From Alphaproteobacteria bacterium (lineage in GTDB: Bacteria; Pseudomonadota; Alphaproteobacteria; UBA8366; GCA-2717185), in NCBI GenBank assembly GCA_040905865.1, contig JBBDQU010000051.1, forward strand, positions 1 through 64,000: a stretch of 64,000 bases of DNA. Reading direction: 5' to 3'. Below, one piece after another: positions 16,059 through 21,057 of the stretch (position 1 is the stretch's first letter; each line of letters starts with the position of its first letter). The notes below the pieces were generated by a model. That model made no database searches. It was not told the DNA's origin and saw nothing but the letters and a program-made list of their open reading frames with translations. A program made the translations under genes and the position numbers.

Positions 16059-16337
16059 CTACCGCTCGTTTCGCTCGCTTTCATGCGCCTCGTAATATGA
16101 TCGCAGGACGGCATTCATGCGGGTCTGGTATCCGCGCCCCTGCGATTTGAACCACGCCACCACATCGCGGTCGAACCGCACCGTAAGACGTTCTTTCGGT
16201 CCGTCCGGGAATACGACTTTCGCCGTCTTCCAGAAATCCGCGCCCAGGGTTTCGCCTTCGGGCGCATTCTCGCGTGTCCGGTCGGGCATGTCCGCCAGAT
16301 CATCCACCGATACGGTTGTCATATGCTTCCCGCTCAT
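16059..16337 (-). CDS. brnA: BrnA-family antitoxin
   Basis: A 92-residue protein. The C-terminal half carries the ribbon-helix-helix-like BrnA domain, with the strand KERLTVRFDRDVVAWFKSQG followed by YQTRMNAVLRSYYEAH. The N-terminal part binds the toxin in the family. It is the second gene of the pair, overlapping the toxin reading frame by 38 bp if translation starts at 16337; an internal ATG at 16322 would shorten the overlap. In known systems the BrnA2-BrnT2 complex neutralises the RNase and represses its own promoter. Confidence 0.9.
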   Translation of the reverse strand: MSGKHMTTVSVDDLADMPDRTRENAPEGETLGADFWKTAKVVFPDGPKERLTVRFDRDVVAWFKSQGRGYQTRMNAVLRSYYEAHESERNER

Positions 16338-16554
16338 GTCGTCCTGCCTTCCACGCCGAAATAATCCGGCGGCTTCCGCCGCGCCAGGTATAAATCACGA
16401 CCATGTAAAATCCGTCCCAGTGACCGACGGCGATCCATCTGGATTCGCTGTAGGGCCCCCGGCTATCGGGCCGTTCCAGAACGGGCCGGACGAAATCAAT
16501 CCCGTGCTTTGCAAGATTGCTGCCGCGCTTGCGCTCATCCCATTCGAAGGGCAT
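16300..16554 (-). CDS. brnT: BrnT-family ribonuclease toxin
   Basis: An 84-residue toxin from the ATG at 16554. It begins with the family pattern FEWDERKRGSNLAKHGIDF, followed by GPYSESRWIAVGHWDGFYMV, VIYTWRGGSRRIISAWKAGR and E-AYDN. These cover the positions of the RelE-like BrnT RNase fold, which cleaves RNA and halts growth when freed from BrnA. A TTG codon at 16572 is in frame, but it lies inside the promoter -10 region, so the ATG is preferred. No Shine-Dalgarno precedes it. Confidence 0.88.
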   Translation of the reverse strand: MPFEWDERKRGSNLAKHGIDFVRPVLERPDSRGPYSESRWIAVGHWDGFYMVVIYTWRGGSRRIISAWKAGRHEREAYDNRIGG

Positions 16555-16559
16555 GATAA

Positions 16560-16588
16560 GTTGTATGTACAAATATATGTTATGTCAA
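16560..16588 (-). promoter_or_regulatory. brnTA promoter with overlapping inverted repeat
   Basis: On the minus strand a consensus -35 TTGACA (16588-16583) is followed, 17 bases later, by -10 TACAAC (16565-16560). The inverted repeat TTGTA-CA-TACAA (16572-16561) overlaps the -10 box, a fitting site for autorepression by the BrnA-BrnT complex. The predicted transcript start falls at or next to the toxin ATG (16554). Confidence 0.6.
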
Positions 16589-16680: not shown

Positions 16681-18324
16681 ATGACCACCTCACAGACTCA
16701 CGCCACGCGGACTCCCGTCACGGTCAGCGATACCGACCTCGACGCCATCATCATCGGCGCCGGTATTTCCGGCATGTACCAGCTCTACCGGCTGCGCGAA
16801 CTGGGCATGAAGGTGCGGGTGTTCGAGACCGGCGGCGATGTTGGCGGGACCTGGTACTGGAACCGCTATCCGGGCGCGCGATTCGATTCCGAAAGCTGGT
16901 CCTACGGGTTTTCGTTTTCGAAGGAACTGCTGCAGGAATGGGACTGGCCGGAGCATTTTGCCGCCCAGCCGGATACGCTGCGCTACCTGAACCATGTCGC
17001 CGACAGGTTCGACCTGCGCCGCGAAATGCGCTTCAACAGCCGCGTGCAATCCGCGCATTTCGACGATGACGCCACCCGCTGGACCGTGACGCTGGAAAAC
17101 GGCGAGCAGGCCAGCGCGCCGATCCTGATCACCGGGCTGGGCCCCCTTTCCGCCTATACCCTGCCGAACATTCCGGGGCGCGACGACTTCAGGGGTCGCG
17201 CCTTCCACACCGCCCGCTGGCCGCATGAGCCGGTCGACCTTGCGGGCAAGCGGGTCGGCATCATCGGCACCGGGGCCTGCGCGATCCAGGCGATCCAGAC
17301 CATCGCGAAGGATGTCGGCCACCTGACCGTCTTCCAGCGCACGCCGAACTGGGCGGCGCCGCTGCACAACCGGCCGATCACGCCGGAGGAACAGGCGGAT
17401 ATCAAGTCGCGCTATGACGAAATCTTCGCCCGCTGCCGCGAGACGGTGGCCTGTTTCATCCACAACCCGGACCCGCGCACGACGCTGGAGACACCGCCGG
17501 AGGAGCGCGAGGCCTTCTGGGAGAAGCTGTATTCCGAGCCGGGCTTCGGCATCTGGATGGGCAACTTCCGTGACATGATGATCGACGAGGAAGCCAACGC
17601 GCTGGTCAGCGAATTCGTCGCAAAGAAGATCCGCCAGCGGGTGCATGACCCGAAGATCGCCGACCTGCTGACGCCGAAGAACCACGGCTTCGGCACGCGC
17701 CGCCTGCCGCTGGAGAGCGGCTATTACGAAGTCTACAACCAGGAAAACGTGACCCTGGTGGACATCAACGCGACGCCGATCCGGCGCATCACGGAAAAGG
17801 GCGTGCGGACCAGCGACACGGAACACGAATTCGACATCCTGATCTACGCCACCGGCTTCGACGGCGTCACCGGCCCCTATGACCGCATCGACATCCGCGG
17901 CCCCGGCGGGCGGCGGCTGAAGGACGACTGGCGGGCGACCCCGCGCACGCTGCTGGGCGTGCAGGCGGAGGGCTTCCCCAACCTGTTCATGGTGCTGGGC
18001 CCGCATACCGCGCGCGGCAATATCCCGCGCAATATCGAGGAACTGGTCGACTGGATCACGGGCATGATCCGCTTCATGCGCGAGAACGGCCACACAAGGG
18101 CCGAACCGCGCAAGGAAGCGGTCGACGAATGGGCCGGCGCGGTCGAGCGGGCCAGCGAAAAGCTGCTCTCCAGCAAGATCGCCTCCTGGCAGACCGGCGT
18201 GAACCGGAATGTCGCGGGCAAGCAGGTGCCGCGCGTGCTGGGCTATAACGGCGGCGCCGTGCGCTACCGCAAGAAGGCGGACGCGGTGGCGGAAGGCGGG
18301 TACCGGGAGTTTGAATTCCGGTAG
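16681..18324 (+). CDS. flavin-containing Baeyer-Villiger monooxygenase
   Basis: A 547-residue class B flavoprotein monooxygenase. It has the FAD motif GAGISG (26-31), the Baeyer-Villiger fingerprint FRGRAFHTARWP (170-181) with its conserved His, and the NADPH motif GTGACA (196-201). An ATGFDGVTG segment occurs late in the protein. Together these match cyclohexanone/phenylacetone monooxygenases, which insert oxygen next to a ketone using NADPH and O2 via a flavin peroxide. The start is taken at the ATG at 16681; no good Shine-Dalgarno is visible and in-frame ATGs lie slightly upstream. The 3' end abuts relics of secretion genes. Confidence 0.9.
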   Translation: MTTSQTHATRTPVTVSDTDLDAIIIGAGISGMYQLYRLRELGMKVRVFETGGDVGGTWYWNRYPGARFDSESWSYGFSFSKELLQEWDWPEHFAAQPDTLRYLNHVADRFDLRREMRFNSRVQSAHFDDDATRWTVTLENGEQASAPILITGLGPLSAYTLPNIPGRDDFRGRAFHTARWPHEPVDLAGKRVGIIGTGACAIQAIQTIAKDVGHLTVFQRTPNWAAPLHNRPITPEEQADIKSRYDEIFARCRETVACFIHNPDPRTTLETPPEEREAFWEKLYSEPGFGIWMGNFRDMMIDEEANALVSEFVAKKIRQRVHDPKIADLLTPKNHGFGTRRLPLESGYYEVYNQENVTLVDINATPIRRITEKGVRTSDTEHEFDILIYATGFDGVTGPYDRIDIRGPGGRRLKDDWRATPRTLLGVQAEGFPNLFMVLGPHTARGNIPRNIEELVDWITGMIRFMRENGHTRAEPRKEAVDEWAGAVERASEKLLSSKIASWQTGVNRNVAGKQVPRVLGYNGGAVRYRKKADAVAEGGYREFEFR

Positions 18325-18325
18325 A

Positions 18326-18517
18326 CGCTATACCGCGCAGCAGGAAGCCGTTACCGGCAGGCTCGGCGCGATCCGCTTCTACCCCGATGGCAGCGCCACC
18401 GGCGGGCACCTGACCCTGGCGCGGATGGCCGGCGGGGACAATGTCGCGGCGACAACGGGACCGGCCATCAGGGTATCGGTCGACTGGCTGACCGGTCGGG
18501 TCGATGTGGAGGATTAG
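18326..18517 (+). pseudogene. 3' remnant of a GspH-type pseudopilin gene
   Basis: The translated piece contains GRLGAIRFYPDGSATGGHLT and ends VSVDWLTGRVDVED. This is the characteristic C-terminal strand pattern of the type II secretion minor pseudopilin GspH (FxPDGSSTGG ... VDWLTGRV). The prepilin leader and N-terminal helix are missing: upstream sequence is the monooxygenase gene in another frame. Its stop overlaps the start of the GspI-like gene by 14 bp, preserving the normal gspH-gspI junction. It is therefore the tail of an operon broken by deletion or by insertion of the monooxygenase gene. Confidence 0.7.
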
Positions 18518-18926
18518 CCGCCGGCGCCAGCCGGCCCGCCCGCCCCGGCGCGGGACGGAAGGCGGGTTTACGGTGATCGAGGCGCTGGTCGCCTTCGCCA
18601 TCCTGGCGGGGGTGCTGGGCGCCGCCTACGGCATCTACGCGGACGGGCTGCGCCGTACGGCGCGGGTGGCGGGTATTGCCGAGGCAACAGCGGAAGCGGA
18701 GAACCTGCTGGCGCGGCTGGGGGTGGAACTACCGCTGGAAGACGCCGCCGGCAGGACCGCGTCGGGCGGGCGCTGGCGCATCGCGGTGGCGCCCTTTGAC
18801 CCGGACCGCCCCCTGCCGCAAACCGACACCGCCCCGCTCATCCCCTACCGCGTTACGGTCATTGTCTCACCGCCCGGCGGCGGCGAGGTGCGACTGGTCA
18901 GCGTGCGGCTGGGGCGGGTGCGTTAA
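18504..18926 (+). CDS. GspI-like type II secretion minor pseudopilin (orphan)
   Basis: A 140-residue protein with a class III prepilin leader: basic residues, then the cleavage site G|FTVIEALVAFAIL around residue 21, with Glu at mature position 5 and a hydrophobic helix. The rest (AEAENLLARLG, GGRWRIAVAPFDPD, PYRVTVIVSPPGG) follows the GspI plan. It overlaps the GspH remnant, but no gspG, gspJ, gspK, gspE or gspD follows; an Rhs-type locus starts instead. Alone it cannot build a pseudopilus, so it is a relic or works with a system elsewhere. Confidence 0.65.
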   Translation: MWRISRRRQPARPPRRGTEGGFTVIEALVAFAILAGVLGAAYGIYADGLRRTARVAGIAEATAEAENLLARLGVELPLEDAAGRTASGGRWRIAVAPFDPDRPLPQTDTAPLIPYRVTVIVSPPGGGEVRLVSVRLGRVR

Positions 18927-18996
18927 AAAGGTTTATCACGCACAAAACAAGACCTGACCCCGCCCAGTATAAGAATGAGCTACCCCGGCTACACAC

Positions 18997-19302
18997 TTAT
19001 TGTTTCTTTTCTTGAATCACACAGTGCCCGATCACCTGCAATGTACGAGTGTTCGTTGAAACGATTTCAAGTTCTTGTCCAGACTCAAATGGACGCGCTT
19101 TTTCAAGCTCACTCACAAACAGAATTTGGCCATTGAAGGGCGCTCCCTTCTTTGCATCCAGATCGATCTCTGGCCGAATGTAAGCAACCAAGACCTTGCC
19201 TTCAAATCGGATCATTTCACCGGAAGGAATGATTTCACCGCGAGCGTCTCTGGCAAAATGTCGAGGTTCCCTATAGGTAATGATCGCCTGATATTCGCTC
19301 AT
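18997..19302 (-). CDS. small protein next to Rhs toxin tail, candidate immunity protein
   Basis: A 101-residue soluble protein, not recognised with certainty. It begins MSEYQAIITYREPRHFARD behind a strong AGGAAGG Shine-Dalgarno; longer upstream frames lack one. It has no signal peptide or membrane helix. Alternating strands and the ending SGQELEIVSTNTRTLQVIGH faintly recall an EF-Tu C-terminal beta-barrel, but this is only a pattern. The gene lies 19 bp after the stop of the truncated Rhs gene on the same strand, the normal place for an immunity gene. Like the toxin tail it is clearly AT-richer than its surroundings. Confidence 0.65.
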   Translation of the reverse strand: MSEYQAIITYREPRHFARDARGEIIPSGEMIRFEGKVLVAYIRPEIDLDAKKGAPFNGQILFVSELEKARPFESGQELEIVSTNTRTLQVIGHCVIQEKKQ

Positions 19303-19321
19303 ACGTGCCTTCCTATCAGCG

Positions 19322-20652
19322 TCATTGCGGAAGTGGAATGGCGCCCACAATCTGCGCCTTACCCATATATGACAGCAAATTATTTGGGAGAGCAATCGCT
19401 GTCACACGACCCATCGCCGGTATATCTGCAAGTGAAATGAACATGTTATTGTCGAGTAGATTTGACGGAATTTGTGCACTAATAACATGCAGCGGAGGAA
19501 CAAACCATCCCTTCCCGTTGGTTGCAAGACTATTACCGAATGCCGTCGCGGTGACAGGATCCTGCCAAAAATATTTCACCATGGCACCATTCGGACTTGG
19601 CAGCAGCCTCATGTCATTTATCATCAAGGAATTTAACTCCCCCATATCAACCGTTCGGTACAACGTAACGATTGGCGGTGTTGCATCAGTTGCTTGAATC
19701 CCAGCTTGCGCAAACTGTCTATTGGGATTTCTCCTATCTGAACCAGATGGTTGCACTTCTCGACCAGCATCCCTTCTCACTCCTTTTGCCACATGGAACG
19801 CCACGTAAGTAAACGCGCCCGTTATCGCGCCATTCGCAAATTTCCCACCGCCAAGTTCAGCTGCCACGCCACCGGACACCGCGGAGAGCACCGTTCCAAT
19901 AGCCTTGTTTCCTTGTGCGATCTTGCTGGCGACCGGGGCAAATCCCCGCGTGAATGCCGCGGCGGCAAAGCCGGATACAAAACTGCCGCCCTGCAACTCG
20001 CTGCCAATTCCGCCCACAACGCCGCTGGCGACGGTTTGGGCGACGTTTGCCAACTCCCCAAAGGCATCGGCAAACGCCTCCCCCGCAATGGCATCCAGGC
20101 TGCCCGCCGAGAGTGCCCCGATTATCCCCGCCCTGATATCGCCGCCGGACGATATCATCCCCGAGATGAAGCCCGCCGCGAAGGCATTTATCCCTGGAAT
20201 GAAAGCTACACCGATGGACGCCGCCATCCGCACAATCTTGTTCTTGAACACCTTGCTGAACAGCTTCTTGACCGCCTTGAACAGCCCCTTGAAGAAGAAG
20301 CCGGACGGGTCGGTCATCGACAGCGGGTTGTTGAGCACGTAGCTGTAGCGGTTCAGCGCCTGCGGGTTCTGGATCGACTGCACGTGCGGGTCCGCCGACA
20401 GGAAGCGCCCCAGCGTCGGGTCGTAGACCCGGCCCCCCATATGCACCAGCCCCACATCGTCCAGCATCTCATGCCCGGTGAAGCCGCGCTTCGTGGCCGT
20501 CGCCACGACCTGCGATGTGGCGTCCAGCCAGTCCGTCACATAGCGCCGCTTGCCATGCGGATCGTAGGACAGCTCCTCCGCCAGCCCGCCCGACGCATCG
20601 GTGATCGAGGCCGGCGGCAGGGCAACTGCCAGACGGCCCTGCAGGACGGTTG
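19322..20652 (-). pseudogene. 5'-truncated Rhs-family gene: core end plus C-terminal toxin-like domain
   Basis: About 440 residues remain. The retained part starts in the last YD repeats (ITDASGGLAEELSYDPHGKR) and carries the Rhs-associated core motif (GRVYDPTLGRFLSADPHVQS, LNRYSYVLNNPLSMTDPSG). A Gly/Ala-rich linker typical of pre-toxin regions follows. The final ~135-residue domain contains TLYRTVDMGELNSLMIND and KYFWQDPVTATAFGNSLA. It is not recognised; the YR...KYF pattern loosely resembles ADP-ribosyltransferase-like Rhs tips. The N-terminal shell is missing and no credible start codon precedes the repeats; the frame runs into the antisense-free coding region of the neighbouring membrane gene. 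It may be a displaced toxin tip awaiting recombination rather than a functional protein. Confidence 0.75.
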
Positions 20653-21057
20653 TTACCCCAGCCGGTCGCCGCCGAACCCGATATCGCGCCGCGCGGTGGA
20701 GATCGTCACGGTGAATCCCGCGATGACATCGACCAGGGTCAGCAGCACGATCAGGGCGAAGCTGCCGGTGCCCATGGCCGGGACGAGGATGAGTTCCAGC
20801 AGCGCCGCCACGAACAGCGCCATCGACAGGGCGTGGTCGGCGATGGAGGCGCCGGTGGTGCGGGTCGATTTCAGGATCTCGAAGTAGAGCAGGATCAGGC
20901 CCAGCCCGACCAGCGCCTCGCCGGTCGTGATCGTCAGGACCGTATTCGAGGGCAGGCCGAAGGACAGCGCCATCGCATTCAGCGGCGTGCCGGTCATGAA
21001 GACGAGGACATTCCAGATCGCGACGACAATGAACAGCAGCGGGATGGCGCGGAACAT
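20653..21057 (-). CDS. four-helix integral membrane protein, unknown function
   Basis: A 134-residue hydrophobic protein with four predicted membrane helices: about 4-22, 40-62, 75-93 and 98-118. The C terminus is short and polar (ARRDIGFGGDRLG). The start ATG follows AGGAAAGG. No catalytic motif is visible and the family is not recognised. It reads into the truncated Rhs sequence, which begins within a few bases of its TAA stop, so the recombination that removed the Rhs 5' part ended at this gene. A conserved hypothetical role is likely; function unknown. Confidence 0.7.
   Translation of the reverse strand: MFRAIPLLFIVVAIWNVLVFMTGTPLNAMALSFGLPSNTVLTITTGEALVGLGLILLYFEILKSTRTTGASIADHALSMALFVAALLELILVPAMGTGSFALIVLLTLVDVIAGFTVTISTARRDIGFGGDRLG

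What the first reader, a model, noticed from the sequence alone, without database searches (positions are those of the whole stretch)
18997..20652. Orphan Rhs C-terminal tip with an unrecognised toxin-like domain and a candidate immunity gene
The Rhs core end (GRVYDPTLGRFLSADPHVQS) is followed by a linker and a ~135-residue terminal domain I cannot assign to a known toxin family; TLYRTVDMGELN and KYFWQDPVTATAFG hint at an ADP-ribosyltransferase-like fold. A 101-residue soluble protein is encoded 19 bp later on the same strand, the canonical place for an immunity gene. Both are AT-richer than all neighbours, suggesting recent transfer. This matches known displaced Rhs/CdiA tips but the toxin and immunity pair may be new.
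Basis: partly seen in the sequence, partly recalled or inferred. Interest (0 to 1): 0.72.

Follow-up and report, generated by a model that had tools for sequence, protein, structure and literature searches.

The report
Stranded Rhs toxin tip with immunity
A bacterium carries the broken-off tip of a large toxin-delivery (Rhs) protein, with what is probably its protective gene; the tip belongs to a small, previously unnamed toxin family, and in two relatives the protective protein resembles a piece of EF-Tu, a core part of the protein-making machinery, which hints at what the toxin may attack.

Summary
Confirmed: the minus strand at 20612-19322 encodes the C-terminal end of an Rhs protein (TIGR03696 core, E 1e-19), a glycine/alanine-rich linker and a ~118-residue tip, followed 19 bp later by a 101-residue ORF with a good Shine-Dalgarno. 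Tip and ORF are 46-47% GC (GC3 ~0.45); the core is 67% (GC3 0.92). The Rhs gene is 5'-truncated, no other Rhs of this kind was found in the genome, and the block abuts a truncated xpsH plus xpsI although no type II secretion ATPase was found. It is therefore most likely a stranded remnant, not a working weapon. The tip matches nothing in Pfam, NCBIfam, PHROGs, PADLOC or PDB. I found three relatives, all at Rhs C-termini and each followed within about 12 bp by a 98-107-residue ORF, so toxin plus immunity is well supported. In two of them (G004; a Pseudomonas plasmid) the partner resembles EF-Tu domain 3. The window's own partner does not score above shuffled sequence, so that link is not shown here. 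An ART-like fold is possible (invariant Arg in an LYR strand), but no canonical ART triad is conserved and the structure models failed (pLDDT 33 and 43). Verdict: new member of a known kind, with one testable idea, EF-Tu-mimic immunity.

The parts
20296..20612 (-). Rhs core end (RHS repeat-associated core, ...GRVYDPTLGRFLSADPHVQS...PLSMTDPSGF), 5'-truncated at about 20612-20652
   Evidence: TIGR03696 E 1.1e-19; 38-53% identity to FG-GAP/Rhs proteins, alignments starting at SITDASGG or ITDASGG in three of four
19691..20295 (-). Gly/Ala-rich linker, shared with Janthinobacterium and Ensifer FG-GAP-Rhs proteins
   Evidence: GC falls from 60% to 54% along it
19322..19690 (-). Toxin-like tip domain (about 118 aa, LYRTVDMGEL...KYFW...), undescribed family
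   Evidence: no family match; leave-one-out score 14.6 bits against 3 relatives, 0 of 2000 shuffles and 0 of 1805 background ORFs as high
18997..19302 (-). Candidate immunity gene, 101 aa (P0001)
   Evidence: 19 bp downstream of the tip stop; upstream ...GATAGGAAGGCACGT-ATG; equivalent ORFs downstream of all three related tips
18504..18926 (+). xpsI-type minor pseudopilin gene, apparently orphan
   Evidence: NF047828 E 1.4e-10; own-genome search with the GspE model gives only a 61-bit partial match, cut-off 630
18330..18517 (+). xpsH remnant, C-terminal part only
   Evidence: NF047827 profile positions 91-139 of 145, E 1.6e-5; lies directly after the monooxygenase stop at 18324
18937..18964 (+). 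Multi-copy REP-like repeat (CACAAAACAAGACCTGACCCCG) at the seam between xpsI and the immunity gene
   Evidence: dispersed copies in the same genome, several near a Y1/RAYT transposase ORF
20653..21057 (-). 134-aa membrane-protein gene bounding the block; not part of the Rhs gene

Best explanation
This is a 5'-truncated, stranded C-terminal cassette of an Rhs polymorphic toxin (FG-GAP/SpvB-type Rhs by its nearest core-plus-linker relatives): core end, linker, a toxin tip of an undescribed family and its immunity gene. In the ancestral full-length protein the Rhs cage would have carried the tip out of the cell and into competing bacteria, where the tip acts in the cytoplasm, and the small downstream protein would protect the producer by binding the tip. 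In this genome the delivery part is gone, so the tip probably cannot be delivered; the immunity gene, with its own ribosome-binding site, may still be made and give passive protection. My preferred, unproven mechanism for the tip is a small NAD-using ADP-ribosyltransferase-like enzyme. For the two relatives with an EF-Tu-domain-3-like immunity protein, I infer that the immunity protein imitates the toxin's target or docking partner, EF-Tu. Shown: Rhs core, tip family, conserved tip+ORF arrangement, truncation, foreign GC, EF-Tu likeness of two relatives' partners. Inferred: toxicity, neutralisation, ART chemistry, EF-Tu as target.
For: Rhs core TIGR03696. Tip family of four members, each significant when left out (14.6, 22.8, 24.4 and 32.1 bits; other Rhs tips at most 1.3). 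All are at Rhs C-termini with a 98-107 aa ORF 7-19 bp downstream. GC3 is 0.92 in the core against 0.46 in the tip and 0.44 in the partner, the mosaic expected of tip exchange. Truncation and no second Rhs of this kind. EF-Tu domain 3: Pfam PF03143 E 0.024 for the Pseudomonas partner over its full length; EF-Tu-only HMM gives that partner 15.6 bits (0 of 500 shuffles) and, with the L114 stand-alone homolog added, the G004 partner 21.2 bits (0 of 500); a five-member profile hits only EF-Tu in PDB (59 of 59, best E 1.1e-6), although that profile includes the L114 EF-Tu-like ORF.
Against: No activity data. The window's own partner shows no EF-Tu similarity above shuffles (0.4 bits, 84 of 500 shuffles as high), and neither does the G497 partner. 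The L107+L113 profile alone reaches EF-Tu only at E 1.5 in PDB. No canonical ART triad: invariant residues are L6 R8 V10 E14 K35 F37 V65 V111, with no Ser motif or conserved C-terminal Glu. Structure models are too poor to use. The tip-family link of the window member is the weakest of the four.
Confidence: 0.6

Rival explanations
1. A functional stand-alone toxin-antitoxin or reserve cassette: the tip and immunity gene are transcribed from internal promoters and act inside the cell, as reported for Salmonella orphan rhs (PMC7043789), or wait to recombine into an rhs gene.
For: Open frame over more than 430 codons with no stop; immunity gene has a good Shine-Dalgarno; Salmonella precedent.
Against: No recipient rhs gene found in the genome; no convincing promoter (2 promoter-like sites against 1.1 expected, one of them on this strand and inside the immunity gene); start codons in the frame lack obvious ribosome-binding sites upstream.
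Confidence: 0.2
2. The tip is an NAD(P) glycohydrolase or another non-transferase ART-fold enzyme, like the Tne5 toxin, rather than a transferase acting on EF-Tu or RNA.
For: ART-fold Rhs toxins without a functional canonical Glu exist (Tne5, PMC13285283); this family also lacks a conserved C-terminal Glu.
Against: No sequence match to any NADase or ART family or structure; EF-Tu-like partners in two relatives would be unexplained.
Confidence: 0.2
3. The tip is not an enzyme at all, and the fragment is a decaying Rhs end with an unrelated downstream gene.
For: Truncated neighbours on both sides; weakest family score of the four for the window tip; no fold assigned.
Against: Four independent Rhs proteins with related tips each have a similar-sized ORF directly downstream; tip and partner share the same foreign composition.
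Confidence: 0.12

Closest known systems
Rhs polymorphic toxins and their orphan/displaced C-terminal cassettes (e.g. Salmonella Rhs-orphan, PMC7043789)
   Same: Rhs core end, variable low-GC tip, small ORF directly downstream, lacks the delivery part
   Different: No main rhs gene found in the genome; sits in a scar with type II secretion gene remnants; tip family not described
TreTu/TriTu, Salmonella Rhs ADP-ribosyltransferase acting on EF-Tu (Jurenas 2022, described in PMC10469887)
   Same: Rhs tip of similar size with immunity gene; possible EF-Tu connection through the relatives' partners
   Different: No sequence match of the tip to any Pfam, NCBIfam or PDB entry; canonical triad not found; whether TriTu resembles EF-Tu could not be checked (paper not held)
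Tne5, ART-fold Rhs NAD(P) glycohydrolase (PMC13285283)
   Same: Rhs tip with downstream immunity gene, ART-like fold proposed, non-canonical catalytic residues
   Different: No detectable sequence match; fold of our tip not established
RhsF-CT of Chromobacterium, ART with atypical R-Y-E triad (PMC13324451)
   Same: Rhs tip; Arg on the first strand is a key residue
   Different: Our family has no conserved C-terminal Glu
GTP_EFTU_D3 (PF03143), EF-Tu C-terminal domain
   Same: Partners of two related tips and a stand-alone Spartinivicinus ORF are similar over the whole domain
   Different: The window's own partner is not detectably similar

Membership tests
Rhs polymorphic toxin (C-terminal cassette) | RHS repeat-associated core ending in the DPxG motif, then a variable tip | tested here: met
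   TIGR03696 E 1.1e-19...LSMTDPSG
Rhs polymorphic toxin (C-terminal cassette) | Immunity ORF directly downstream of the tip | tested here: met
   101-aa ORF at 19 bp; same arrangement in three relatives
Rhs polymorphic toxin (C-terminal cassette) | Full-length delivery part in the same gene | tested here: not met
   5'-truncated at about 20612; no other Rhs match in the genome
Rhs polymorphic toxin (C-terminal cassette) | Tip toxic and neutralised by partner | not testable with these tools
   needs expression assay
ADP-ribosyltransferase toxin (R-S-E or H-Y-E) | Catalytic Arg or His on the first strand | tested here: inconclusive
   Arg invariant in an [LF][YF]R strand in four of four members, but fold not established
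ADP-ribosyltransferase toxin (R-S-E or H-Y-E) | Middle Ser/Tyr motif and C-terminal catalytic Glu | tested here: not met
   no such invariant columns in A3; the C-terminal part of the window tip (after WFVPPL) has no Glu
ADP-ribosyltransferase toxin (R-S-E or H-Y-E) | ART split beta-sheet fold | tested here: inconclusive
   AlphaFold2 pLDDT 32.7 (window tip, single sequence) and 42.6 (relative, three sequences); Foldseek E at least 1.1
EF-Tu domain 3-like immunity | Sequence similarity to GTP_EFTU_D3, relatives' partners | tested here: met
   L113 partner E 0.024 in Pfam and 15.6 bits on EF-Tu-only HMM; L107 partner 21.2 bits once L114 is added; the G497 partner does not meet it
EF-Tu domain 3-like immunity | Sequence similarity to GTP_EFTU_D3, the window's own partner | tested here: not met
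   -0.6 to 0.5 bits, not above shuffles

The most novel reading that the evidence does not exclude
The tip belongs to a new antibacterial toxin family that attacks or docks on EF-Tu, and its immunity proteins arose from a copied EF-Tu domain 3 that acts as a decoy; the window's partner would be a diverged member of that lineage.
Probability: 0.2. Interest if true: 0.65.

Novelty: new member of a known kind. Interest (0 to 1): 0.42.

Why it matters
It defines, from four scattered genomes, a toxin-immunity family that current libraries miss, and it suggests a concrete target: partners of two members look like EF-Tu domain 3. If the immunity protein is a copied piece of the target, it would show how immunity can evolve by imitating the victim, and would give a quick route to the toxin's target. 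In this particular genome the cassette is probably a relic, so its value is as a family member rather than as a working system.

Tried and rejected
Tip and partner against Pfam, NCBIfam, PADLOC, PHROGs and PDB sequences: nothing. Tip against order, class and phylum genome samples: the hits L004-L009 are chance matches in unrelated genes or frames with stops. Partner against a phylum sample: only itself. IMG/VR and GTDB peptide-pattern scans with the window tip or partner, and a KYFW...AFG codon-pattern scan (61 genome hits): all unrelated. Plasmid and phage tblastn with the window tip or partner: nothing convincing. Relatives were only reached by reading Rhs loci in the same order and stepping from there. 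L117 was not read further and L118 is a chemotaxis-gene match, rejected. The idea that the window's partner is itself EF-Tu domain 3-like came from reading the sequence and failed three tests. T2SS clusters in three relatives (L105, L106, L110) had no Rhs ORF recognised in the stretches fetched, so the T2SS-Rhs adjacency is not a general rule.

Full report
OBSERVATION. The feature is on the minus strand. Rhs homology begins at about 20612 (window coordinates), runs through the core (GRVYDPTLGRFLSADPHVQS...LSMTDPSG), a Gly/Ala-rich linker, and a tip that starts near LYRTVDMGEL, with the stop at 19322. The core matches TIGR03696 at E 1.1e-19. The neighbouring ORF (P0001, 101 aa) runs 19302..18997 and is preceded by GATAGGAAGGCACGT. 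The 592-aa ORF that a mechanical caller gives is an artefact of an open off-frame reading through a 134-aa membrane-protein gene at 20653..21057.

COMPOSITION. GC is 67.5% in the core, 60.5% and then 54.3% along the linker, 47.2% in the tip and 45.8% in the partner; GC3 is 0.92, 0.59 (linker), 0.46 and 0.44. The core looks native to a high-GC genome, and tip plus partner look imported. Such mosaics are established for Rhs tips (own knowledge).

SETTING. No other Rhs matching this fragment was found in the genome (85 contigs, estimated 100% complete). On the far side of the partner lie xpsI (NF047828 E 1.4e-10) and a C-terminal piece of xpsH (profile positions 91-139 of 145), directly after a monooxygenase gene that stops at 18324. 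The genome has no confident GspE (one partial 61-bit match, cut-off 630), so these pseudopilin genes also look like orphans. A dispersed repeat, CACAAAACAAGACCTGACCCC, lies between xpsI and the partner; other copies in this genome lie near a Y1 transposase ORF. I read 18325-20652 as a scar of two truncated pieces meeting end to end. Full-length relatives of the core plus linker are FG-GAP/Rhs proteins on Janthinobacterium and Ensifer plasmids, and in one Janthinobacterium plasmid such a gene stands next to T2SS genes. In three same-order relatives with T2SS genes I recognised no Rhs ORF in the stretches fetched.

THE TIP FAMILY. The window tip has no match in any library. Reading Rhs loci of the same order turned up a similar tip in G004 (L107:8094-8405). 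That one found a Pseudomonas aeruginosa plasmid FG-GAP/Rhs protein (35.5% identity over 99%, E 7e-7), also present in two IMG/VR contigs. A profile of these three found G497 (L116). Leave-one-out scoring gives 14.6 (window), 22.8, 24.4 and 32.1 bits, while seven other Rhs tips score at most 1.3; for the window tip, none of 2000 shuffles and none of 1805 ORFs reaches 14.6. Invariant residues are L6, R8, V10, E14, K35, F37, V65 and V111. All four tips end an Rhs protein, and each has a 98-107 aa ORF 7-19 bp downstream.

THE PARTNERS. The Pseudomonas partner matches Pfam EF-Tu domain 3 over its full length at E 0.024, below the curated cut-off. Against an HMM of EF-Tu domain 3 alone it scores 15.6 bits with 0 of 500 shuffles as high; the G004 partner scores 4.0 bits (3 of 500), rising to 21.2 (0 of 500) when the stand-alone Spartinivicinus ORF L114 is included (L114 itself E 1.3e-5). 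A profile of five partner-like proteins hits only EF-Tu in PDB, but it contains L114, and the two-member profile without it reaches EF-Tu only at E 1.5. The window's partner and the G497 partner are not above shuffles. So EF-Tu-like immunity is supported for two of four members and is not shown for the window.

FOLD AND CHEMISTRY. An ART-like reading rests on the invariant Arg in an LYR-type strand and the overall size. It is weakened by the absence of a Ser or Tyr motif and of a conserved C-terminal Glu, by no PDB hit with the four-member profile, and by unusable AlphaFold2 models (pLDDT 32.7 and 42.6) whose Foldseek search gave only noise. Atypical ART-fold Rhs toxins without a functional canonical Glu are known (Tne5, PMC13285283), so the reading is not excluded.

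VERDICT. A real, 5'-truncated Rhs tip with a plausible immunity gene; a member of a small undescribed tip family; probably a relic in this genome. The most interesting lead lies in its relatives, whose immunity proteins may imitate EF-Tu.

Noticed in passing
window 18937-18964; L082, L084: Dispersed repeat CACAAAACAAGACCTGACCCC, several copies near a Y1 (IS200-like/RAYT) transposase ORF in the same genome (Pfam E 8.5e-12); one copy sits at the seam of the Rhs scar.
   Followed up: partly
window 16059-16572 (-): BrnT/BrnA type II toxin-antitoxin pair (Pfam E 4e-18 and 6e-18).
   Followed up: yes
window 18330-18926 (+): Truncated xpsH and an intact xpsI pseudopilin gene in a genome where the search found no confident type II secretion ATPase.
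   Followed up: partly
L085 (Janthinobacterium plasmid NZ_CP049829): FG-GAP/Rhs gene pair with a small downstream ORF, followed by type II secretion genes.
   Followed up: partly
L113 (Pseudomonas aeruginosa plasmid CP109682): FG-GAP/Rhs gene with a tip of this family lies beside Mu-like phage genes (GemA, Mor, DUF3164).
   Followed up: no
L114:8851-9243 (Spartinivicinus plasmid): Stand-alone 130-aa EF-Tu domain 3-like protein (Pfam E 1.3e-5), annotated elongation factor Tu, about 6.6 kb from a VgrG gene; could be an orphan immunity gene.
   Followed up: partly
L107:7383-16943 (G004): Row of several Rhs C-terminal cassettes with near-identical core ends, different tips and small downstream ORFs.
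   Followed up: partly
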